In this document: positions 1 to 26,391 of the stretch, piece after piece
Layout: every line of letters starts with the position of its first letter
How positions within the stretch are numbered: position 1 is the stretch's first letter
The notes under the pieces: generated by a model
Seen by the model: only the letters and a program-made list of their open reading frames with translations
Told to the model about the DNA's origin: nothing
Databases searched by the model: none
Program-made: the position numbers and the translations under genes
NCBI GenBank assembly: GCA_022579005.1
Contig: MU401812.1
Span: 1-28,376 of the forward strand
Direction: 5' to 3'
From: Poronia punctata
Lineage: Eukaryota; Ascomycota; Sordariomycetes; Xylariales; Xylariaceae
DNA length: 28,376 bases

Positions 1-782
1 AAAAGCTTATAGTTTTAAGTATAAAAACTACTTATGCTAGCTTTTTAGTGCTATAAAAAAAGCTTATCTTTTTTTTACTTATATTAAAAAAAAATTTATT
101 TTTAAGTTTATAGCTTTTGCTATATAAGTAAAAGCAAGTTTTTAACCTTTTTTTATATTTACTTATAATAGTATAAAAAAATAAAAGTAGCTAATATTTT
201 TAAACTATAAGAAATATTAAGTAAGCAGCTTTTACTTTTTTTTTTATATATTTTTTAATAATATAAGTAATTTTAAAAAAAAAGCTACGTATTTTTTAAA
301 AGGTCTTTTTCTTAGTCTTAAAAGGTTTTTTTTGTTAGTTTGCAAAGGTTGTCTTTATTATAACATTATATATATTATAAACTTAAAAATAAAATCTTAA
401 AAAGTAGTAATTTTTTAAAAAAGTAAAAGTAAAGTTTTAAATAATAAAAACTTATAATAATTTTAAAAAGAAATAGTAGTATTAAACAATTTTATTTAAT
501 ATTGTCTAAATTTAAAGTTTTTAAGTTTATATATTATAAAAATCTTATTTTTTATATAATAATATATAGTTATAGTATAGCTAATTAAGCAAACTTGCTA
601 GCTACTATTTAATAGCACTAAGATCCTTAAATTTAAAAATAAAATATAAATAAATTAATTAACTAACTAAAATTAAAAAACTAAAGGTTTTTTATATTAA
701 AATCTTAAATTCTAGTGCTTTTAAATTATATAATATAATCTAGTTTAATTTATTTAGTAGTAGACTGTTTAGTTACTTATTA
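1..782. other. AT-rich gene-free flank
   Basis: No reading frame, RNA gene or repeat pair could be supported here. The sequence is dominated by poly-A/poly-T runs, TA steps and scattered AGCT words, with stops in all frames. It resembles the rest of the window and is probably older RIP-decayed transposon sequence, but no homology within the window shows which element it came from. Confidence 0.6.
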
Positions 783-859
783 TAATATATATACTACCTA
801 CGCTAATCTTAGCATCGTTTTTTACTTTTTACTTTGCTAAATATAGTTAATACAATTTA
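783..859 (+). repeat. Left terminal inverted repeat
   Basis: It begins TAATATATATACTACC and contains GCTAATCTTAGC. Its reverse complement matches 3624-3699 nearly throughout, including the shared core GTGCTAAGATTAGC (here with A for the second G) and a GTAAAAAGTAAAAA stretch. Weaker inverted similarity continues inward for about 40 bp. Confidence 0.65.
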
Positions 860-3059
860 TTAAAAGTTATTAGCAATTTTATATAACTTTTTTACTAGGT
901 TAGCTTAGTATAAGCTAGCTTTTTTTAGTATATAATATTTTTATACTATTTTTTAACTTATTTTTTTAAGTAGTTTAAAAAGTATGTTTATATAATATGC
1001 TACTATATTAGCAATATATAAAAAAGCTTCTTTTTTAATAAACTTGTTAAAAATAAAAGTGCTTTATAAACTTATTTGCTTAAGACAATAATTTATAAAT
1101 TAGCGTTAATAGCTAATTTAAGCAATTTAAATAAGACTTTTACTGCTAGGTTATATATTATAAAATAATATAAAATAATAAGCAAAAATGTAAAAGGTTT
1201 TTTATATTTTTTAAAAGGTTTTATAAACGTAAAAAAACCTTTTTTATATTTCTTTAGCTTTTTATAAAAATAGCTTTTTTTATTTAAAAAATTTAAACAA
1301 AACACTTAAGCTTTTTATTATAAGTATACTAATTTTATTTTATATAATTAAACTTTCTATAACTGTATTATTTTTATTAAAAAGTATAAGTATATTAGTA
1401 TTGTTATATAAAAACTTATTGCAGTTTTTATAATACTAGTTTAAAAATATAACTATAAGTTTAAAGTTTTTATTAAATGCTATAATAATAAATTTATTAT
1501 TATTAAAATATTTTTAAACATTTTTTACTTTTTTCTTATTTTTAAAAACTTTAAGTAAGCTTTTTTTAAAACTATTAAAAAAGCTTATAAGCTTTCTTTT
1601 TTAAATTAATTTTTGTTTAATATAGTATAGTACTAGATTTAATTTAGCGTTATTTTTATTTTCTACGTCTAGCTTTAAATTGTAAAGCTTTTTTTTAAGT
1701 TTTGTTTTACTAAATTTATATTTTTAGCAAATATAGAACTTAAAATTATTTTATGCTTTTATAAACAATTATAAATTATATTATATATATAATAAATATT
1801 TAGCTTTTAATATTAATTTCTTTTTAATTTTTTAAAATCTCTTAACCTTTTTTAAATAATAAACATGTTTTTTTTTCTTGTACTTTTAGCGCAGCTATTA
1901 GCATATTTAAAAAAATATTTAGTTTAGTTTTAAAAAGTAGTTTTATTAATATACTATTTAAAAAAGTAGCTAGATTATCTTTTATAACTTTTTAGCTTAT
2001 AAGGCTTATTTTTTGCTTTTTTGCTTTTAGACTTTTTTATAAGCTACTTTACTTTTTTTTTAAATAAAGTTTTTTTAAAGTTTTTTTAAAACCTATATTT
2101 AGCTATATTTTGCTTATTAAGTATTAGCGTAGCTTTTTAGTTATTATTATAGTTTATACTTTTAGCTTATAAGCCTTTTACCTTTTTAGCTATATGGTTA
2201 TTAATTGCTTTATTAAGCGTTTTTATTATTAGTACTGCTTTTTATAGTATAAGTTATGCTGCGTTTTAAACTTTAAAATTTGCTAATAACTTTTAAAGTA
2301 AAGCTATATTTTAAAATTTGCTAATTTTAATTACTTTTTTTATAAGTGTAAACATATTTTTATAAATAAATCTATACTTGCTTTTTATTTACTTAATATT
2401 AGACTTTTTTAAAGTACTGCTTATTAGCATATTATTTATTTATATATTGCTTTTTTTATAAAACAATAGTTATAGTTTATAAAATTTGTTTATAATACTA
2501 ATAACCTTTTTTTTTATTTTATTTTTATTACTAAAAGCTTTTTTTAAGTGTTTAAGCTTTTTTTTATATTAAATAATAACCTTAAAAGGTTTGTTTTTAA
2601 AATTAAAAACTTTTGCTTTTATTGTTATAACTAAAAACTTTATATTCCTTTTTTTAAGTACTTATTTTTATATTAAAATAAGAAGGTTTTAATATATTTA
2701 AGTTATAAAGAAAAGTTTTTATTTCTTTATATATTTATATTGTTTAAAAAGTTTTATTAACTTTTTTATAAGCATTATATACTATTAATAAAAAATAAAA
2801 CTTAAGTTTAAAGCGTTTTTAGTACGCTATAAAAATTGCTTTAATATATTTTTTAATGTTAATAAAGCAGCTATATAAATTTAAACGTTTTTTATAGTTA
2901 TTAATATTTATACTAAGTATATTAATAAAAGCATTAAATAATAAAGTAAAAAACTTAAAAAAGTTTTATAGTTTTAATATAAAAGTATTAAAACCTAATT
3001 CTTTATATAAGTAAACTTATAAATTCTTTAACTAAAAGTTAAAAAATAAGTAAATTTTA

Positions 3060-3400
3060 AAAAATTAAAAAAATTAAGAAAGGTTACTGCGCAAAAAGCT
3101 AAACAGTAATTTTTATAGCAAAATTTAATACGTTTTGTTATATAAAATATAAATTTTTAGTAAACAGCAACGTCTTTTTTTATATTAGTATAACCTAGCT
3201 TGAAGTAGCGCAGCACGCGTTACTTAAGCTAGTGCAATCTAGAAATAATAAAATTTACCTCTAATTTTAAGTTAACAAAATAATATTACCCTATATTATA
3301 TTATTTTATTGCTTAATAATACGTTAGCACGTATAATTTATATGTATATAAGTAAAGTAGTATAAGTAGGCCCCCTTATAAGCATATATATTTTATTTTT
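3060..3400. other. Higher-complexity island inside the TIR element
   Basis: This stretch retains CpG, CpA, TpC and short C runs (for example GGCCCCC at 3369-3375) that are rare around it. It therefore looks either less RIP-mutated or of different origin. No open frame or RNA gene was recognised. It includes the hairpin at 3195-3232. Confidence 0.5.
3195..3232. repeat. Imperfect hairpin, CTAGCTT/AAGCTAG stem
   Basis: The outer arms CTAGCTT (3195-3201) and AAGCTAG (3226-3232) pair perfectly. The stem continues through AAGTA/TACTT and CGC/GCG with single-base bulges around a short AGCA loop. It is one of the most GC-rich hairpins in the window. Confidence 0.6.
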
Positions 3401-3623
3401 TGCTTTACGTTTTAAAATAAAATTTATTATATTAAGCATAAGCATTTAAGTTAGCTTTTACTTTATACTTTTTTAAAATTAGTTTTTTAAAAAGTATATA
3501 GTTAAGTTTTTTTACTTTAAAAGTAGTAGCTTAATAAAGTTATTATAATATATACGCTTTAATAGTACTATACTAATTTCTTTTGTTCTTTTTTATTATA
3601 TTGCTACTATAAATATTATTTAA

Positions 3624-3699
3624 TAGATTATATTAATTATATTTAGTAGAGTAAAAAGTAAAAACGGTGCTAAGATTAGCATAGCTAGTATATATATTA
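3624..3699 (-). repeat. Right terminal inverted repeat
   Basis: This is the inverted partner of 783-859. The match ends at ...GTATATATATTA (3699), after which the two sequences diverge completely. That sharp outer boundary is what defines the element edge. Mismatches with the left copy are mostly transitions, plus one single-base length difference in an A run. Confidence 0.65.
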
Positions 3700-5189
3700 A
3701 ATATATAAAATTAATTAATATATATATATAACTAGTTTATAAGTACGTGTTGTTTAACTTTTATAGTTAAGCAGTACTTATATTTATTTTAGTTATATAT
3801 TAGTTAAGCAGTTTAACTTACACTTTAACTATAAGTGCTATAAAGTAAATTATGTTTGCTGCTTAATTAAGTAGTAAGTAAAATGTGCTTTATCTTTTTT
3901 TTTTTTTTTAATATTGCGCACTTTTTATTTTAGCTTTATTTTTAACGTTATAATTATTAAACAACTTAAAAGTATTTTTATTTAGTACTATATAGCGCGT
4001 ATACTTTATACTAAGTATATAAACCTTTTTTTTATTAGTTATTATATATATCCTTATTATTAATAAACCTAAAATAATTATAGCATAATTTATAAAGCGC
4101 GCAGTTAATTTCTTAATTAACGCGCTATATATATTATATTTTTTAAAATAAGCTTTGCTTATTATTTTAATATTAAACTAATTGTTGCTTAATTTGCTAA
4201 TATATGCTAAACCCTTTTTTACTTTAATAATAACTACTTAGTTATTTTTAAAGTAAACCTATTATTTATTATATATTATATATAATATTTTATACTTATA
4301 ATTGCTTATATATATAATATTTATATATTTTAAAAAAATATTTATATAAACTTTATAAAGTAATTATTTTTAAAAACAAAAATATTTTTTATACTATATA
4401 GTAGCGTATACTATATAGCTTAACTTATTAAAGTTATTTAAATTATTTAGCTTAACTTTTTTAAACTTTTAGCTTATATATAAAGCTAATAAGTAATTTG
4501 TTTTTATATTTACGTTTTATTATAAGTAGCGCTTTTTTTTTTTTTTAACTTTTAATAAGCTTTTTGTTAGCATTTGCAAAAGTGCTAGTTTTTTTAAAAG
4601 TATTTTAAATTATGCTAGCTTTGCTATTTTTAGTTGCTATGCTTATTTTAACAAAGCAGCTTTTTTAAAAAAATATAACTACGCTGCTAACAAAGCCTTT
4701 TTTAAAAAAAGCAACTATATTAATAGCTTTAAAACTTTTGTTTATTATATAAATACTTTTTTTATATATTACTTAAAAGCTATTAAGCCTTATTTAATAG
4801 CTTTTTTGCTTTATTTAGTTATTTTTAATACTATACTTTATTTAAGTTAACTTTTTTTGCTTTAACTACTTTTAAATAGCTAGCGTTTTTTATATTTACT
4901 TAAATTTAAATTTAAATTTAAAAGCTTTATTTATAATTTAAATTTAATTAAAATAAATAGTTTTATTTTTTTGCTTTTTTATTTTTATTATTATTATTTT
5001 TACTACTACTTTTTATATTAAAACTAGCTTATCTTTTACTTATAAAATAGTTAACTACTTATTTTATAAGCTATTTAGCTACTTAATATATAAGCTAATT
5101 AATAACTTTTTTTAATTAACTAGTTATATTTTATATACTTTAATTAATTACCTATTTTTTTATAATATATATAGTAAGTATAGTAAAAA
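3700..5189. other. AT-rich spacer, no gene recognised
   Basis: No frame with recognisable protein similarity was found on either strand. It contains a hairpin at 4096-4126, two direct copies of ATACTATATAG (4391-4401 and 4408-4418), an (AAATTT)n run near 4900-4922 and ATT/ACT-rich simple sequence near 4987-5020. It is probably decayed transposon sequence. Confidence 0.5.
4096..4126. repeat. Hairpin with AGCGC/GCGCT and GTTAATT/AATTAAC arms
   Basis: AGCGC (4096-4100) pairs with GCGCT (4122-4126), and GTTAATT (4104-4110) pairs with AATTAAC (4115-4121) across a TCTT loop, with a small internal bulge (GCA against nothing or C). The stem is seen directly; no function can be assigned. Confidence 0.55.
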
Positions 5190-5396
5190 TACCTAATTAG
5201 TAAAGGATACTATAAAGTAGTATAGTAAATTTTGTATATTAATAATATAAAGAAAACAAAATCTAGCAAGCCTAGGTTAATTAGCTAATAGTAACTAATT
5301 AGCTTTAATATACTAGGTTTTATTTAATTTAGCTATTTAATTTAAAGCTATAAGACTTTATTTTTATAATAGGTTTTTCTATAATATATTATATTA
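5190..5396 (-). repeat. 3' LTR remnant of element 1
   Basis: Aligned with 26190-26391, this segment shares long exact blocks such as GCAAGCCTAGGTTAATTAGC and ATAAGACTTTAT. Most differences are transitions, nearly always with the solo LTR keeping C or G (GTGCAC against ATATAC, CTAAGG against TTAAAG). The match ends at ...ATATTA at 5396, the LTR edge next to internal sequence. Sequence left of about 5190 does not match, so the LTR is truncated. A short inverted repeat (AATTAG...CTAATT) sits near its centre. Confidence 0.75.
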
Positions 5397-12654: not shown

Positions 12655-12975
12655 ATAACTTTAATTGTAATAAGGTTAGGAAGAATAACTAGTGCAAAGA
12701 CTAATATATGTCCTATGTTAACAATAAAATCTAAAGGTAAAGAACTAAAAACTAAAATATATAGTATAGTGTTGTTTATACTTATTTATATTTCTTTTAT
12801 TTTAAGGTTTTATTATAGCCTTTGCTTAAAGTTTAATTATAGCTATTATTTTTTGTTATAAGCTTTTAATAAAAAGGTAGTAAGTACGGTTTTATAACTA
12901 TTAAATTAATAGGTTTATTTTATATTTATAAAATTAATTAAATTAATATATATAAAAACTACTTTTTTATTATAA
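12655..12975 (-). repeat. 5' LTR remnant of element 1
   Basis: This aligns with 25661-25985 of the solo LTR over about 320 bp, with shared blocks such as ACTAAAATATATAGTATAGT and AAAGTTTAATTATAGCTATTA. Differences are mainly transitions. Similarity stops abruptly near 12975, where the solo LTR continues into unrelated sequence, so the outer part of this LTR is missing. Confidence 0.75.
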
Positions 12976-17710: not shown

Positions 17711-18939
17711 TTGTTTTTTTATAATTAATAGCTTAGCTTACTTAAAGTTAAGTTTAGCATATATAAATATTTTGCTTTTTTTAATTTTAAAGCAAAAAAT
17801 ACTATAATAGTTTATTTTTATTTTTTAATTACTAAATTTTTTAGTTTATTTTATAGTTTTAAGTTTAGCATTAAGTTATTTAAGTTTAACTAGTACTTTT
17901 TTTTAAATTTAAATTTTTTATTTTTAAGTAAGTTAACTTTTTATTTATTAATAAAGTTTTTATATTGCTAATAATTAAAAATCTAAGTATACTTATAATA
18001 CTATATAAAAATAATAATTAAGTTAATTTCTTTTAGTAAACAAAAAACATTTAAATAGTTTAAAACTTTATTATATATATTACGTTTAAACTTAAATAAA
18101 AAAATCTAAGCTTAGCTAGCTTATTTAGTAAACTAAATATTAAAATTATTAAATTTGTTTTTATTAGCTATTTTAAAATCTTAGTATTTAATTTAAGCTG
18201 TTTTATATTTATTTAAGTTATAATATTATTAGTATAAATAGTTTAACACCTTAGCTAATATTTTTAAAATTAGTTTTTTTTTTAAATAAAGCTATTAAGT
18301 CTTTAGCTATAGTTTTGCTTATTTAACTAGCAATATAGGTAATCTTGTTGCTATTATTAATAAAATAATTATAATTATATTTTAATTTCCTTTTTAATAA
18401 TATATACTAATATTTAAATTAAACTTTAAACTTTTTTTTTATTTTATTATTAGTAAAAATAAAAAGTAAGTTTATTTTTGCTATTTGTTTATTTTTTATT
18501 TTAAATTTACTAGATTTTAAAATAAATTAACAAAATTAGTTTATTAAAGCAATAACCGCTATAGTTATAATTTAGTTTTTTAAACCTATATAAGTTTTCT
18601 TTAATTTCTATGCTTTTTTTTGCTAAGCTATACTAGCAATATATTCTTTTTTAAAAATTTTAATTTTAAAAAGCTTAACTAAACTTAATAGCTTAAGCTT
18701 ATATTTTTAATATATTTTTTTTAAGTTTATTGCTATATTATATAAGTTTTTAACAATAAAAAGTACTACTTATAACGTTAACAATCTATGCTTAAATTTT
18801 TAATATATAGCTTTAAAATCTTTATTTACTATTTTAGTAAATCTTTTTTTATTTATTAGTTTTTAAAAATTTAAATATACTTAAATAGCATTAAAGGTTA
18901 TAGCTTTAAATAGTACTATAAAGGTTTGCTTTTTTTTTT
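17711..18939 (-). pseudogene. Decayed gag and 5' end region of element 2
   Basis: This is upstream (minus sense) of the zinc knuckle. Gag matrix/capsid sequence and a 5' LTR would be expected, but neither can be read. It ends at the sharp boundary of the next element at about 18940. Confidence 0.35.
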
Positions 18940-19039
18940 AGCTTAGGTTATAGGCCTATAAGGCCTTACCTATAACCTTACCTTTTATACTACACTTTTT
19001 ATATACATTTTGCAGCGCTAGCAGGTTAAAATTAATTTA
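18940..19039 (+). repeat. Split direct repeat A1 (left terminus)
   Basis: It matches 24663-24762 over exactly 100 bp without gaps. This copy retains more C and G (GGCCTATAAGGCCTTACC against AGCTTATAAAGCTTTACT). It contains a strong hairpin, AGGTTATAGG (18945-18954) with CCTATAACCT (18969-18978), around CCTATAAGGCCTTA. Sequence left of 18938 has no counterpart at 24660, so this is the left edge. Confidence 0.8.
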
Positions 19040-20700
19040 AAAGCAATATATTAATATAATAACGTTATATTATATATTAAATTGTTTTTTTTCAAGTTTA
19101 TTTACTTTTTTTTAATAGCTTTATTACTTATTATAATAGCTGCTGCAAAATTTATAAAAAGTAAATAGCTTATAAAAAATTTATATAAAAATATTAACTT
19201 TATTTAGTAAATTAAAAGCTAGCTAAGCTAAAAGGCTTAAACTAAACTGCTATAGCTTATAAATAATAATGTTTATATAAGCAAGTTTTAGCTATTAGTT
19301 ATTTTAAGCTTAATTAAACTACTAACTTAGCTAAAAGTGCTTAATATACTAATAAAGCAGGTAATAATTAACTTAGCTAAAGCTTTAGCTTAAGTAAATA
19401 AAAACTTAAAGTATTATAAATAACTAGTTTATATTTGCTGCTTTAAACGCTTTAAGCAATTTAAAGCTAAAAAAGTATAATTAGCTATGCTAACTTATAT
19501 TTTAAGTATATTATAAGCTTAAAACTAACTTAGCTTTAATTAGTTACTAAATAAGATTTATAAGTACTTTTTTATTATTATTATAACTACAAAAAAGGTT
19601 TTTAGTATTAACTTTAAATACGTTTAAAGCATTTATTAAAATAAACTTAACTTAGCTAACTTAATTAACTTTTAAGTTAAAACATATAACGCGTTTTTAA
19701 TATTTTAACTATATGCTAACTAGCAAATAAGCATAGTTATAATAGTTATTTTTATAGCAAAACTTAAAGCTTATAATATAAATATTAGTATTTAAGCATA
19801 TTGTTTTATAATTTATATAGCAATATACGCTTGCTTTTTTATAAAGCATTTTAAAGTTATTTAAGTAATAAACAATTTTAGCTAACATATTTTTAAGCTA
19901 TTAATAATATATAAACTTTAAGCTATTATTATATTTATAATAATATAAATAAAGTTTATTAACGTAAGCTTTTATAATATAAAACTTTAAGCTAAGCAAA
20001 ATGCTAGTTAAAAATAATATCTTTATTACTATATATGCTAAAGCAATTACTTTAATTAAGCACTACTTTTAATAGCTTATTATTAAGCTATAAAACTTAT
20101 ATTTAATAAAATAAAAGTAAATATAACTTAGTAAAAATATGCTATTGCTACTTTCATATTTATAGCTATTATAAGTTTAAATTATATAAGTCCTTTGCTT
20201 GCTTTAAAAAAATTAAAATAGCATAGCTAAAAATAAACTATTTTTTAGCTAGTTTTTAAACGTTAATAACTTAAAACTAAAGCTGCTTTTAATTTAAAAG
20301 CGCTTTTTTAAAAAAAGACTAAAGTATTATAAGCTAAATTAGCAAGCTATGCTTTATACTAGCTTAATTAGCGCGTAATATAATTTTTTTTTTTACTTTT
20401 AACTTAAAAGGCCTTTTATTAGTTAACCTTTTTTTGCTTTTAAATATATATACTTAAAAGCTTAGCTTTTTTTAGTATTTTAGCAACTTAAAACTAATAA
20501 TAAGCAAAATTTTATATTTTAAAGCTTTACTTAGCTTAGTATTGTTTTTAAAACTAGTTTAGTTAAAAAACTTTTATTTTATAAATAATAACTATATAGT
20601 TATTAAGTAGCAAATTACTATAAACTTAGCTTTTAAAAAAATTATAAAAGTTTTATTTTATATAAAGCTTTTAACTTTACTACTTAGTTTAGTTTTTAAG
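19040..20700 (+). pseudogene. Decayed first ORF region (possible gag) of the YR element
   Basis: This plus-strand stretch precedes the reverse transcriptase. DIRS/Ngaro elements place a gag-like ORF here. The sequence is richer in A-containing Lys/Asn codons on the plus strand than on the minus, consistent with plus-strand coding, but no CCHC knuckle or other landmark was read. Confidence 0.35.
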
Positions 20701-21540
20701 TTTAATAAAAGCTATTAGCATATATATTACTTTTTTTGCTTTAATAAATAATTAGTTAATAACTATATTTTAGCTAAATATAGCATATTAAAATATATTA
20801 TAATTTTAAACATTTTTAACTTAGTTTAATAAGCTAGCTATAATATATACTTTATTAAAAAAGATTTAAAAAACGCTTTTTAGCTTATATTAATTACGTT
20901 GCTATAGCGCTAGCTACTTACCTTTTAATAAAAAAAACGTTTTTATATAAAAAACTGCTTGCTTTTTAAGCTTTGTTTAGCTTTTTTTTTATTTAACTTT
21001 TTTATAAAAAGCTTTTATTAAATACTATAAACTTTATTATTTTAGCTTAGTATTATATATTATTTTAATAACTTTATTTTTATTATTTTAAAAGCAATAG
21101 CGCGCTATGCGCTTAAAGTATATACTACGTACTTTTTTTTTACTTAAGCCTTTAGCCTTTTTTTAATAATAAAAAGAATATTAAAAGCACTTATATTAAA
21201 ATACTTAGCATTATAGTTAATTTAATATTAATAACTAAGCTTTTATTAAATATAAAGCTTTAAAAAGCAAACTACTTAATATTTTTTGCTTTATTATAAC
21301 TTTTAGTTATAAAAAACAAGCTTAAGTTTTTAATAAGCTACTTTTTTTTTACTTATTAATTATATTTATTAAAAAAGCTTTTTTAATTAACTTATAGTAG
21401 TTATTATAACTTTTTTAAAGCTGTTAGCTATATACTTTGCTTTTAATAATATAAGCAAAGTTAAAATAGTAAAAAAACTTAATTAAAACGTTTAATAGGT
21501 CTTTTATGCTTTTAATAAATAATTGCTTAATGTTTTACTT
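20701..21540 (+). pseudogene. DIRS/Ngaro-type reverse transcriptase, RIP-inactivated
   Basis: A single plus-strand frame (codons in phase with 20863) runs through the whole domain without an indel. It shows VNNYI near 20755 (the S-V-N-D-x-I motif typical of this group), DLKNAF at 20863-20880 (motif A, catalytic Asp preserved), LLTF, then KKRFYIKNCLLFKLCLAF. The latter keeps the spacing of the F-Y-x-x-x-C-L-P-F-G-L-R-S-A-P segment (Pro to Leu, Gly to Lys). Next comes motif C as YYFNNF at 21058-21075, where Y-L-D-D is expected and both Asp codons are AAT/AAC, and then LKYLALQL (21199-21222; family ...EFLGxxxD). The first residue of motif A to motif C is 68 codons, normal for reverse transcriptases. 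Stops are all TAA or TAG. The FYxxxCLPFGLRSAP-like segment and the VND motif favour DIRS/Ngaro over Ty3/gypsy. RNase H should follow but was not read. Confidence 0.85.
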
Positions 21541-23835
21541 ATTTATTAATATTTTAAGCTATAGCTTAAATAGCTTTTAGTACTAAGCTAGCTTAGTATA
21601 ATTAAATTAATATATAGCTTTGCTAATTAGCTTATATTAAGCATATTAGTATTATTAAAATAGCTTTAAAATAGTAGCATATATAAATATAGCTAAAATT
21701 AATATAATTATAATTGCTTTTGCTTAATAATATATAATATAATAGTTAAATACTATAATTATTTATATTAATAATATAATAGCTTAAGCTAGCATTATAA
21801 ACGCTTTACTATAAAACTTGCTTTTTTTAGCTTTGCTTTATTAAGTACTAATAATAGTAATAATATTAAATATTTTATTATATATTTATTATGTTTTTTA
21901 GCTAATAATAGCTTAGCTAACGCTTTTTTATAGTTTAATACTTAAATATTAACTAACTTATATTTTATTTAGCAGCTTTTTTTAAAAAGTACTTTTTTAA
22001 GCGCTTTTTTAAGCATATAGCAAGCTTAATAATAAACTTAAACTATATTTATTTACTTTAAGCTAATATAGTAAAGTTTACTTAGTAAAAATATAAATTA
22101 GTAATAAGCTAATTTAAATAATAGTATAGCTTTTATAGCTTTTAGCTTTAGCTTGCTTAAAAAAAAGTTTTTGCTTATTATATTTTTAACTATATTTATA
22201 AATAATTAATAACTTATATTTAAAAGTTAATACTTTTATTTTACTTATTTAAACTATAAGCAATTTATATTAACTTAATACTTAACTTAATAGTTTTTAA
22301 TAGCTTATATATTTGCTATTTAATATAAAAAACAACGTACTTTTTATTTTATTTTATATATAATAAAAAAAAGTAAGTAATTTTAGCTTAGCTATTAATA
22401 TAATTATTATTTATTTAAGCTTATATAAGCAAAACTTAAAAAATATTTATATTGCTAATATAGCATTTTTATTAGCTTAGTATAGCTTTTTATACTTTAG
22501 CAAAATTATTTATTTTAATTATAATACTTTAAATATTTACTATTTTATAAAGCTTAGCTTAATATAAAAATATATTAACTTTTTGCTTTAAGCTAACTAC
22601 TTTTATATTTTTTTTTATACTTTAAAAATAAATTATAACTAAAATAGTATAAATATTATAATTTATATAACTAAGCTAATAGCTTGCTTAGTTAAGTATA
22701 TAAAAGCTTTGCTTAGTTAAACTTTATTTTTAGCTTATATTGCTAGCTTTTTACTTTTTTTTTAACTTAAAGCTAGCATATTTTTATATTAAAAAGCTTT
22801 AGCTATTTTAATAAAATGCTTAGCTAACTTTAATATTTTATTAAAAATTTATATTAAATATAGCTTTTATAAAAAAGCAATATAGTATGCTTATAATATA
22901 AGCTTAATAAGCATTAAAATTAAACTACTTAGTAAATAGTTATTAAATATATTTAAACGCTATTATAAAGCATTACTTTTAAACTTTTTTAAACTTTAAA
23001 GCAAGTTTATTATAAGCTTTAGTACTTAATAGTTAATATAGTTTACTTATAATATTATATACTTTATTTTACTTAAATAATTAAATTTTTTATAAATTAT
23101 AAACAAAGCGCTACTAGCTTATAATAGTTATATATATTAAAATTTATTTTATATTTTAAGCAAATAGTAAGTTTAATAACTTAAATTTTTTATAAAGTAT
23201 AAGTAATATAATAATAATTTACTACTAATTTATAAAACCTACTTTTTAGCTTTTTTATTTTTATTTCTTACTTTTATTAACTTTTTATTTTAAGCAGCAG
23301 CTTTAGCTTTATATGCTTTTTTTTTTACTTATAAGCATTTTTAACCTTTTTTAAAAAAGCTTTTTAAAAATATTAGTTTTTATAATATATTAGCAATTTA
23401 TAGCTAAATTGCTAAAAAAGCACTTATAGCTTATTTTATAAAAAGTAAGTTTTTATTTTAAATTATTTAAAAGTTAAATAGCTTTATATACTATAAACTA
23501 TATATTAAACTTTTTTTTAATATTATAGCGTTTAATAAAAAGCTACTAAAATATTAATATAGCAATAATATATTATGCTTTTTTAACTTTACTTATAATA
23601 TAATAGCTATTGCTTTTTTATTTTTTATAAAACTTAATATATTATATATACTTATTAGTTTTTAAAATATAGTTTATAATATAAAAGTTATTATAATTTT
23701 ATAAACTATTAGTAGTATACTATAATATTAGCGCTGCTTTATAAAAATTTAGTTTTTATTTACTTAAGTAATAAAATTAAAGCAATTTTTATAAAGTATA
23801 TTTTGTTTTTTAAAACTTAATAAATTTTAATTTAT
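21541..23835 (+). pseudogene. Decayed RNase H and recombinase N-terminal region of the YR element
   Basis: This lies between the readable reverse transcriptase and the recombinase core. RNase H and the SAM-like N-terminal domain of the tyrosine recombinase are expected here. Plausible fragments occur but none carries enough landmarks to be claimed. Assignment is by position between two identified domains on the same strand. Confidence 0.4.
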
Positions 23836-24490
23836 AAATTATTAAAAGCTTATTACTAAGTTATAAAAATAGCATTTATACTTATTATTATATTTAAAAT
23901 ACTTAAAATTTATAAGCGCTAAAAGTATTTTTTTTATTTTAAGCATACTAATTAAAACATTGCTTTTATAAAGTATTAATAATATTTTATTAATTTATAC
24001 TTTAACAGCTTTTAAAAAACTTACTTTAATATAATTTAATAATAAAAAGCAATAAAAAAAAACTTATTTTTTAAAAAAGTAATATAAAAAAAAAAAAAAA
24101 AAGGTTTAGCAACTTAAAAAAAAGCTTTTTTTTATGCTTGTTTTTTACTTACTTTTATTACTTTTTTAAATAATATAGCACTATTAGCGCTTACTAATAT
24201 TATATTATTTTTTACTACTAAGCTTTAGTTACTTTTTATTTTAAAACTAATAACTACTTATTATAAAACTAACTTCTTTTTTATTTTAATTTAAAACTTG
24301 CTTACGCTTTATATTTTTTACTAATTTAAAAGTTAATAACTTTATATTAATATATTTTATTAAAAGTTTAACTTAAATATAATTAAGCATAAATATAAGT
24401 AGCTGCTAGCTAGCTAGCAATTTAGTTATATATTATAATTTTTACTTAGCTATAGCTATATTAATTAAGCTTAATAAAAGCTTTGCTATT
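23836..24490 (+). pseudogene. Probable tyrosine recombinase (YR) of the DIRS/Ngaro-like element
   Basis: In the plus-strand frame starting at 23836 the reading is KLLKAYY*VIKIAFILIIIF, KILKIYK (23896-23916), then KHTN*NIAF near 23941 and FNSF*KTY near 24001. This matches the order of the tyrosine-recombinase catalytic domain in these retroelements: A-F-x-L-x-x-x-x-G-x-L-R-x-x-E (box I; the Arg would be AAA at 23905, from AGA), the H-L-T-x-x-D-I-x-F segment, and the S-K-T-D segment with the beta-turn Lys. Downstream KHKYK at 24385-24399 has the H-x-x-R spacing of box II (His intact, Arg now AAG). After a one-base shift AAS*LAI follows, compatible with G-A-A-T/S-x-A. The C-terminal part, including the nucleophilic Tyr, would fall inside repeat B1. 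The enzyme would cut and rejoin the circular cDNA with the target. The call combines motif order with the split repeats; individually the motifs are weak. Confidence 0.6.
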
Positions 24491-24662
24491 AATATAGCTA
24501 TATAATACTAACTTATAAAATATTAGCTAAGCTTACTAATAAAACTTTATTTTATTAAGCTTATTATATATTTTTTTTGCTAGCTAGCTATAAAGCTTAT
24601 ACTTTTTTAATATATATACTAATTAACTTTATAAAATATATGCTTATAAGTATACTATAAAT
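24396..24662 (+). repeat. Split direct repeat B1
   Basis: It aligns gap-free with 24902 onward at a constant offset of 506. Over 265 bp I count 39 differences, of which 36 are C to T or G to A in this copy, one the reverse, and two transversions. It starts TAAGTAGCTGCTAGC and joins A2 directly at 24662/24663. It probably encoded the end of the recombinase. Confidence 0.82.
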
Positions 24663-24762
24663 AGCTTAGTTTATAAGCTTATAAAGCTTTACTTATAACT
24701 TTACTTTTTATATTATATTTTTTATATATATTTTATAGCGCTAATAAGTTAAAATTAACTTA
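24663..24762 (+). repeat. Split direct repeat A2
   Basis: This is a gap-free 100-bp match to A1, beginning AGCTTAG and ending AATTAACTTA. It is more mutated than A1 at most differing positions. It is contiguous with B1, forming the composite B1A2 that resembles a joined terminal junction. Confidence 0.8.
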
Positions 24763-24901
24763 CTTACTATTTTTATTTTAACTAGCTAGCACTATATATT
24801 ATTAAAAAAAGGGGTTTAAAAATAAAAAAAGCTTAAATAAGCTAAAATAGCTATATATTTTTATTTTTTAGTTTTTTATTTTAAGTTTTTTTTTTTTTAA
24901 C
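24763..24901. other. Spacer between A2 and B2
   Basis: 139 bp of A/T runs, with a short GGGG at 24811-24814, AAAATAAAAAAAGC and TTTTATTTTTTAG segments that are partly complementary, and a 13-T run just before B2. It has no match to either end of the coding region. Confidence 0.6.
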
Positions 24902-25169
24902 TAAGCAGCTGCTAGCTAGCTAGCAATTTGCTTATATATTGCAATTTTTACTTAGCTATAGCTATATTAATTAAGCTTAATAAAAGCTTTACTATTAATA
25001 TAGCTACGTAACGCTAACTTATAAAATACTAGCTAAGCTTACAAATAAAACCTTATTTTATTAAGCCTGCTACGTACCTTTCTTGCTAGCTAGCTGCAAA
25101 GCTTACGCTCTCCTAATATACGTACTAATTAACCCTACAAAATGTGTGCTTACAAGTGTGCTATAGATG
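24902..25169 (+). repeat. Split direct repeat B2 (right terminus)
   Basis: This is the less mutated copy of B, retaining GCA, TGC, CGT and CTCTCC words that are ATA/TTT-type in B1. Similarity to B1 runs from TAAGCAGCTGC to CTATAGATG and stops at about 25169, the same internal point at which B1 meets A2. This marks the right edge of the element. Confidence 0.82.
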
Positions 25170-25653: not shown

Positions 25654-26391
25654 TAATATAATAACCTTTAAATTATAATAAGGTTAAAAAGAATAACTAG
25701 TATAAAAACTAATATATATTCTATATTAACAATAAAATTTAAAAGTAAAAAACTAAAAACTAAAATATATAGTATAGTATTGTTTACACTTATTTATATT
25801 TCCTTTATTCTAAGGTTTTATTATAGCCCTTGCTTAAAGTTTAATTATAGCTATTACCTTTTACTATAAGCCTTTAACAAAAGGGTGGTAGTTACGGTCT
25901 TATAACTATTAGATTAACAGGTCTATCCTATGTCTATAGGATTAATTAGATCAATATATATAGAGACCACCTTTCTGTTATATTAACTAGGTTTTAGCTT
26001 AGTAACAATGCTTAAAGTTTTAAGAAACAACCTTGCATATTACTTTAGCTAGGATGTAGGCTTTAAAAAGGTGCAAGATAAATGCTAAGGTTTTAAAAAA
26101 GAATGTACTTAATTTATACCTAGCTGCTGCTATAAAAAAAAGTAAAATATAACTAAATAGGTCGTATTAATTAATTAACTTACTGCACTGTTTAGTAAAA
26201 AAAACTATAAAGGAGTATAGTAAATTCTATAAATTAATAATGTAAAAAGGAAAGAATCTAGCAAGCCTAGGTTAATTAGCTAATAATAACTAATTAGCCT
26301 TAGTGCACTAGTTCTTATTTAATCTAGCTATCTAATCTAAGGCTATAAGACTTTATCTTTATAATAGGTCTTTTTATAATACGTTATATTA
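25654..26391 (-). repeat. Near-complete solo LTR of the element 1 Ty3/gypsy family
   Basis: The 738-bp unit matches both LTR remnants of element 1: 25661-25985 to 12655-12975 and 26190-26391 to 5190-5396. Between them is about 200 bp with no other copy in the window, as expected for a whole LTR. Its ends, TAATATAA and TTATATTA, form an 8-bp inverted repeat consistent with a RIP-altered TG...CA pair. It keeps noticeably more C and G (CTATCCTATGTCTATAGG near 25923) than the other copies. Flanking pentamers (ATAGT, TTAAT) do not match, so a target-site duplication is not evident. Strand is given by element 1's coding direction. Confidence 0.72.

What the first reader, a model, noticed from the sequence alone, without database searches (positions are those of the whole stretch)
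18940..25169. DIRS/Ngaro-like tyrosine-recombinase retrotransposon hidden in RIP-destroyed DNA
The order A1 - coding - B1A2 - spacer - B2 is the split-direct-repeat signature of YR retrotransposons. It coincides with a DIRS/Ngaro-type reverse transcriptase (VNNYI, DLKNAF, FYIKNCLLF, YYFNNF in one frame) and a probable tyrosine recombinase on the same strand. B1 stops resembling B2 at the same base where A2 begins resembling A1, which a chance pair of truncated LTRs would not predict. To my knowledge YR elements are reported less often in ascomycetes than in basidiomycetes and early-diverging fungi, so this lineage may be undescribed.
Basis: partly seen in the sequence, partly recalled or inferred. 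Interest (0 to 1): 0.85.

Follow-up and report, generated by a model that had tools for sequence, protein, structure and literature searches.

The report
Dead tyrosine-recombinase retrotransposon in RIP-scarred fungus
The window holds one copy of a small family of retrotransposons that apparently inserted themselves with a tyrosine recombinase instead of the usual integrase; the copies found in this fungal genome are all heavily mutated, apparently by the fungus's own defence against repeats, and such elements are rarely reported from ascomycete fungi.

Summary
A1 18939-19039, B1 24396-24662, A2 24662-24762 and B2 24902-25168 are real repeats. The layout is a family trait: six full-length copies, and 10 of 10 right ends and 10 of 10 left ends examined, fit A1 - coding - B1A2 - spacer - B2, none with B beside A1. 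A second family, 65-68% alike, shows it in 4 of 7 loci. There alone can all 14 copies be read as H..R..[H/W]..Y with Cre/XerD spacing; no profile recognises it. The B/A junction of the least damaged ends resembles a recombinase core site. Decay is RIP-like: 1322 of 1441 variable columns are C/T- or G/A-only. Ngaro-type by structure; phylogeny was not possible. Ascomycete precedents exist (N. fischeri, Z. tritici): a new member of a known kind.

The parts
18939..19039 (+). A1, left terminal repeat; starts TAGCTTAG
   Evidence: 10 of 10 left ends examined start with the same octamer after unlike flanks
19535..21936 (+). Approximate extent of the first coding frame (gag-like part, RT, RNase H); stops and small frameshifts throughout
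   Evidence: third-position excess of transversions between two families in most 300-bp bins of element positions about 600-3000; limits judged by eye
20857..21075 (+). Reverse transcriptase core: KKDLKNAF 20857-20880, FKLCLAFFLF 20965-20994, YFNNF 21061-21075
   Evidence: copy L040 hits RVT_1 at E 0.0047, below the curated cut-off, L038 does not; RIP-aware score of L040 45.8 against 27.9 (sd 3.1) for 40 codon shuffles
21761..21936 (+). Probable RNase H end: IYINN 21761-21775 and LANNSLANAFL*F 21898-21936
   Evidence: assignment by motif (recalled), no profile hit
22163..23080 (+). Tyrosine recombinase frame; box I FLYFSK 22487-22504, lysine block 22622-22639, HxxR block KYSFYKKAI 22856-22882, tyrosine RYYK 22958-22969
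   Evidence: no profile hit
24396..24662 (+). B1, internal copy of the right terminal repeat
24655..24676 (+). Core-site-like junction inside B1A2: arm 24655-24661, octamer TAGCTTAG 24662-24669, arm 24670-24676 (in this mutated copy 6 of 7 arm positions are complementary)
   Evidence: perfect 7-bp arms are seen only across the less damaged B2 and A1 ends of L038 and L040
24662..24762 (+). A2, internal copy of the left terminal repeat
24763..24901 (+). Unique spacer between A2 and B2 (139 nt here, 146-154 in the five other full-length copies)
24902..25168 (+). B2, right terminal repeat; ends ..CTATAGAT
   Evidence: empty-site paralogs resume at about 25169

Best explanation
This is a degenerate copy of a Ngaro-type tyrosine-recombinase (YR) retrotransposon. 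Shown: A1-coding-B1A2-spacer-B2 in 6 of 6 complete copies; an RT frame followed by a second frame with YR catalytic spacing on one strand; insertion without target duplication or deletion beyond one shared T; RIP-like decay. Inferred: the RNA starts near A1 and ends in the 3' repeats; the internal B1A2 supplies the terminal sequence lost at both RNA ends; the cDNA closes into a circle whose B/A junction equals B1A2; the YR recombines the 8-bp core of that junction (CTGTAGA-TAGCTTAG-TCTACAG as read across the B2 end and A1 start of copies L038 and L040) with a chromosomal site that need share only its first base, T. After integration the left end keeps the element's octamer and the right end the target's. 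RIP then damaged the copies found here.
For: Layout in 6 of 6 full-length copies plus 4 further right ends and 4 further left ends; same layout in 4 of 7 loci of a second family. Empty sites: for the window insertion 8 of 10 fetched paralogs align across the join without indel, inside a T run that hides single bases; for L037 5 of 5 and for L039 6 of 6 fetched paralogs equal the joined flanks plus one T. Coding phase. RT: RVT_1 E 0.0047 in L040; RIP-aware alignment of L040 to an intact gypsy RT of the same genome 45.8 against 27.9 (sd 3.1), 0 of 40 shuffles reaching it. YR: H(0)R(3)[H/W](26)Y(35) possible in all 14 copies at 1 of 6223 start positions, inside the predicted frame; same spacing in XerD and Cre; the box I arginine is still encoded in 1 of 14 copies, L040. 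Junction arms: 164 of 100000 shuffles as good. RIP.
Against: No profile recognises the recombinase: PF00589 finds nothing in the genome at E up to 1 while its 14 control genomes ring; Pfam gives nothing for eight YR read-throughs but one weak unrelated hit; the AlphaFold model is useless (mean pLDDT 42.6); RIP-aware alignment to Cre, XerD and lambda Int does not single out the YR frame. Lambda Int itself departs from the tested spacing (Y at +34, K at +26). The RVT_1 hit is below its cut-off and came from 1 of 2 copies tried; the window copy gives none and its RIP-aware RT score is not above other frames; the second gypsy RT does not stand out in any copy tried. Two protein searches returned no relative. 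The H,R,W,Y test is permissive, since TAT can stand for several residues; without H/W a second position passes, and single copies pass at 5-9 places. The junction arms are perfect only in the two least damaged copies, 5 bp in L045, 4 bp in L046, absent in L048; L047 was not scored. Ngaro rather than PAT rests on layout and on not seeing a methyltransferase.
Confidence: 0.92

Rival explanations
1. An ordinary Ty3/gypsy LTR retrotransposon whose LTRs were truncated, next to a solo LTR in tandem, giving A1...B1 then A2-spacer-B2 by accident.
For: A2-spacer-B2 taken alone looks like a 507-nt solo LTR (coordinates), and the RT of L040 scores against a gypsy RT.
Against: The same breakpoints recur in 10 of 10 right ends and 10 of 10 left ends examined and the same layout in a second family; no direct duplication above 2 bp in 6 of 6 complete copies and none against empty sites; the gypsy residues after FGL are unreachable in 14 of 14 copies.
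Confidence: 0.02
2. A PAT-type element (DIRS group) with split direct repeats and a methyltransferase that can no longer be recognised.
For: PAT and Ngaro share split direct repeats (PMC4157794, passages); about 1.3 kb between the YR frame and B1 has no assigned function.
Against: No consistent codon-phase excess after element position 4200, so no sign of another gene there; in the fungal survey the split-repeat elements are Ngaro and DIRS have inverted repeats (PMC3783388, passages).
Confidence: 0.05
3. A Crypton or other YR DNA transposon that picked up RT sequence, or a chance RT fragment beside repeats.
For: Only the YR and the clean insertion would be needed.
Against: The RT frame is under coding constraint between the two families and lies inside the repeats in the six complete copies.
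Confidence: 0.01

Closest known systems
Ngaro retrotransposons (fungal groups 1-4 of Muszewska et al. 2013, PMC3783388; abstract and passages seen)
   Same: A-pol-B-A-B repeats; RT, RNase H and YR; no inverted terminal repeats
   Different: The copies found here are all RIP-mutated; which Ngaro group it would join is unknown
Zymoseptoria tritici Ngaro family RYN (PMC4502367; passages seen)
   Same: YR retrotransposon with complete copies in an ascomycete
Neosartorya fischeri Ngaro remnant (PMC3783388; passages seen)
   Same: YR retrotransposon in an ascomycete
   Different: That one is single, truncated and without terminal repeats; here two multi-copy families with complete repeats
Cafeteria Ngaro elements (PMC8547959; passages seen)
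   Same: A1-[ORFs]-B1A2B2 layout, YR with HxxR and Tyr, typically about 6 kb
   Different: In a flagellate, partly nested in virophages, with YR and RT recognised by Pfam
DIRS1-like elements (PMC3266345; passages seen)
   Same: Proposed circle junction that recombines with a matching target and leaves no duplication
   Different: Inverted terminal repeats and a 3-bp junction there; split direct repeats and a single shared T here

Membership tests
Ngaro | Split direct repeats ordered A - ORFs - B A B, internal repeats downstream of the YR | tested here: met
   second family in 4 of 7 loci
Ngaro | RT encoded | tested here: met
   hit below cut-off, in L040 only
Ngaro | RNase H encoded | tested here: inconclusive
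   motif reading only, within the coding frame
Ngaro | Tyrosine recombinase on the same strand after RT-RNase H | tested here: met
   by coding phase and catalytic spacing; profile, fold and pairwise tests negative
Ngaro | No methyltransferase domain | tested here: inconclusive
   no coding phase after element position 4200 and no Pfam hit, but RIP hides known domains too
Ngaro | No target-site duplication | tested here: met
   one T is shared (that Ngaro lack duplications is recalled; shown for DIRS1 in PMC3266345)
Ngaro | RT/YR phylogeny within Ngaro | not testable with these tools
   no relatives retrieved; mutation load
DIRS1-like | Inverted terminal repeats with internal complementary regions | tested here: not met
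   of 66 inverted pairs in 18-26 kb the 25 longest are listed, at most 54 nt and 82% complementary, AT-rich; none joins the two element ends
Ty3/gypsy LTR element | Complete LTR at both ends | tested here: not met
Ty3/gypsy LTR element | 4-6 bp target duplication | tested here: not met
PAT | Methyltransferase in pol | tested here: inconclusive
   as for Ngaro
Crypton | YR without RT | tested here: not met
   RT frame inside the repeats

The most novel reading that the evidence does not exclude
The B1A2 junction is a lox-like core site (inverted arms around an 8-bp spacer) and integration has fixed polarity: in family 1, 10 of 10 left ends examined keep the element's octamer while 10 of 10 right ends carry T followed by target sequence. 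Two-strand exchange of unlike spacers followed by replication should give the mirror arrangement about half the time, so the recombinase may exchange only one strand, as if a single-stranded or half-site cDNA were the substrate, with replication finishing the insertion. (The dull alternatives, biased mismatch repair or a crossover of only one to three bases at the T, are not excluded.)
Probability: 0.25. Interest if true: 0.65.

Novelty: new member of a known kind. Interest (0 to 1): 0.45.

Why it matters
YR retrotransposons were reported as nearly absent from ascomycetes (one truncated element in a 2013 survey, one family in Z. tritici in 2015). Two multi-copy families here, almost invisible to Pfam because of RIP, suggest that the absence may partly be a detection problem: repeat layout finds them where profiles cannot. 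The copies also come with empty sites, which show the integration product directly, and with paired terminal and internal repeats that measure how RIP falls off at the edge of a duplicated stretch.

Tried and rejected
Pfam scans of the window reading gave nothing. A profile search of the 5.8-billion protein set (7995 candidates scored, E up to 1) and a region search (368 candidates, E up to 10) gave no relative; the third allowed search, with E. coli XerD, listed only close XerD relatives and was of no use. PDB profile search empty; a PDB search with XerD was made as a yardstick and not used further. AlphaFold on the YR frame: pLDDT 42.6, not used further. RIP-aware pairwise alignment to Cre, XerD and lambda Int did not discriminate frames. 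Degenerate-motif scans of IMG/VR found nothing; of GTDB one bacterial hit that I did not follow. PF12012 (Crypton-like by recall) silent, but its control was silent too. Script failed on file names; one search used scoring too loose for such AT-rich DNA and was replaced. An LTR reading, a PAT reading and a Crypton reading were weighed and put lower.
Full report
WHAT IS THERE. The window is contig C359 of an unnamed 45.05-Mb genome in 573 contigs. GC in 500-bp steps is 11-26%. A2 starts on the last base of B1, one T being shared.

A FAMILY, NOT AN ACCIDENT. A B2 probe found 22 matches in the genome and an A1 probe 12. An RT-region probe found 49 matches, of which 10 are strong (89-100% identity) and seven form a second group at 70-74%; the rest are short, and only 40 of 93 candidates were scored. 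I fetched 20 stretches. Six copies are complete (window, L033, L037, L038, L039, L040; 6230-6343 nt); L034, L035, L036 and L041 give four more right ends, L042 and L043 two more left ends, C130 and C112 two more left ends. In 10 of 10 right ends B1 runs into A2 at the same base; in the six complete copies a unique spacer of 139-154 nt follows before B2. In 10 of 10 left ends A1 starts with TAGCTTAG after unlike flanks, and no B match lies beside it. Set aside: C132, which holds a truncated A2-spacer-B piece and a second short B match, and L044, which has neither end in the stretch fetched. So the order A1 - coding - B1A2 - spacer - B2 is the element's own anatomy.

A SECOND FAMILY. Seven loci (L045-L050, L052) share about 65-68% DNA identity with the first family over parts of the coding region. 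Four of the seven (L045, L046, L047, L048) show the same layout by self-comparison; L049, L050 and L052 did not in the stretch fetched. Their ends resemble those of family 1: B ends GTGCGCTGTAGAT in L045, and A starts TAGGTTGT (L046, L048) or TGGGTTGT (L045, L047).

CLEAN INSERTION. The two flanks of the window element match 15 other loci where they lie side by side. Ten such sites were fetched: eight (L064-L069, L072, L073) align across the join without indel, inside a T run that hides single bases; L070 and L071 carry small indels there. In the six closest, the T run is as long as in the window's left flank, one T more than the L037 and L039 rule would predict, which I put down to slippage in the run. 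For L037, five of five fetched paralogs equal the joined flanks plus exactly one T; for L039, six of six. None of the six complete copies has a direct duplication longer than 2 bp, even counting that T. This is recombination-like insertion, not DDE-integrase insertion.

CODING CONTENT. Transversions between L040 and four family-2 copies, counted by codon position in 300-bp bins, show third-position excess in one frame in most bins from about element position 600 to 3000 (weak at 1201-1500) and in another from 3300 to 4200; after that no consistent excess (the four copies are related, so counts are not independent). The first frame holds RT: read with stops as X, L040 hits RVT_1 with E 0.0047 (17.1 bits, cut-off 29.6), L038 does not, the window does not. 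A RIP-aware alignment to the genome's own intact gypsy RT L001 scores 45.8 in that frame for L040, against 27.9 (sd 3.1, maximum 34.0) for 40 codon shuffles, and 39.5 for L038 (not shuffled); the second gypsy RT, L002, does not stand out, and in the window copy another frame scores higher. Codons at FGLxxAP, YxDD and DLKDAF fit in 14 of 14 copies (12 of 12 at one position), but the gypsy residues T-N or T-G after FGL fit in 0 of 14. A DIRS/Ngaro-type pair, as I recall it, fits in 14 of 14; no such reference sequence could be retrieved. RNase H is named from motifs only.

THE RECOMBINASE. The second frame is window 22163-23080. Across ten family-1 and four family-2 copies only one of 6223 start positions lets every copy be read as H, R at +3, H or W at +26 and Y at +35; it lies in this frame, element position 3929 (positions with fewer than 8 readable copies were not counted). 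XerD has H, R, H at +26 and Y at +35; Cre has H, R, W at +26 and Y at +35; lambda Int has Y at +34 and K at +26 (sequences). With H, R and Y alone a second position, 2834, also passes; single copies pass at 5-9 places. The test is therefore suggestive; its strength is the agreement with coding phase and with two families. The box I arginine is still encoded in 1 of 14 copies, L040. Other methods failed: PF00589 silent in the whole genome, Pfam silent on the reads but for one weak unrelated hit, fold useless, pairwise RIP-aware alignment not discriminating.

THE JUNCTION. In L038 and L040, whose ends are the least damaged of the six complete copies, the B2 end followed by the A1 start reads CTGTAGA-TAGCTTAG-TCTACAG with the single T shared: 7-bp perfect inverted arms around 8 bp. 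164 of 100000 shuffles of the L038 ends do as well, with spacers 4-12 and small offsets allowed. In L045 (family 2) it is GTAGA-TGGGTTGT-TCTAC (2275 of 100000); L046 keeps 4 bp with the same 8-bp spacing; L048 does not show it; L047 and the other four complete copies of family 1 were not scored. Inverted arms around 6-8 bp are the usual form of YR core sites (recalled; annotates a lox repeat). Right flanks of family 1 start with A (7 of 10) or G (3 of 10) after the T; the four family-2 right ends seen start with C, A, A and T, so there is no shared preference beyond T.

DECAY. In a 12-copy alignment 1322 of 1441 variable columns are C/T-only or G/A-only; 35 gap-rich columns were set aside. Between B2 and B1 of the same copy, pooled over 10 copies, 382 changes go in the RIP direction, 18 the reverse and 5 are others; mutated fractions by context are CA 0.76, CG 0.73, CT 0.29, CC 0.25. 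In 10 of 10 copies the terminal B2 keeps more G+C than the internal B1, and in 6 of 6 A1 more than A2. Three complete copies (L033, L038, L040) sit in 41-49% GC DNA, so the ends stand out against normal sequence. All 28 matches listed for an RT-RNase H read-through contain stops.

HOST. 48 matches to the HET domain fit a filamentous ascomycete (that this family marks Pezizomycotina is recalled); the assembly carries no name.

WHAT IS KNOWN. Muszewska et al. 2013 (PMC3783388, abstract and passages) give the A-pol-B-A-B order for Ngaro and report a single truncated ascomycete element without repeats (N. fischeri). PMC4502367 (passages) reports one complete Ngaro family in Z. tritici; PMC7181583 (passage) lists one Ngaro in Z. 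tritici by repeat masking. PMC3266345 (passages) found no well-conserved DIRS1-like copies in 75 ascomycetes and describes circle-junction integration without duplication. PMC8547959, PMC4157794 and PMC6681497 (passages) describe split direct repeats in Ngaro, PAT and VIPER. PMC4905642 (passages) added nothing on ascomycete Ngaro. The searches listed no further ascomycete family that I recognised from titles and abstract starts; the passages I read describe no core site at the B/A junction. I opened nine of the listed papers, passages only, and subscription papers are not held, so this does not show that none is in print.

VERDICT. A Ngaro-type YR retrotransposon family by structure and insertion mode, damaged beyond function by RIP. 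Ordinary in kind, uncommon in place, with an unusually clear view of the integration product.

Noticed in passing
A1/A2 and B1/B2 of the copies; window 18939-19039, 24396-25168: Terminal repeats are less RIP-mutated than their internal twins (B2 over B1 in 10 of 10 copies, A1 over A2 in 6 of 6). If both twins started equal, this measures how RIP fades at the edge of a repeat.
   Followed up: partly
window 12660-12959 and 25668-25967: 300-nt direct repeat, 86% identical, 13,008 bp apart, embracing the YR element: possibly the two LTRs of an older element into which it inserted; the immediate flanks recur side by side at 15 other loci.
   Followed up: partly
window 5197-5396 and 26192-26391: 200-nt direct repeat, 86% identical, 20,995 bp apart; suggests another nested layer.
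   Followed up: no
G000 C178 (L001) and C12 (L002): Two full RT matches without stops in open frames of 1461 and 1353 aa, gypsy-like by motif, among 32 RT matches of which only these and a partial one on C74 have no stop: probably young copies that RIP has not reached.
   Followed up: partly
window 23080-24395: About 1.3 kb between the recombinase frame and B1 with no consistent coding phase and no known role.
   Followed up: no
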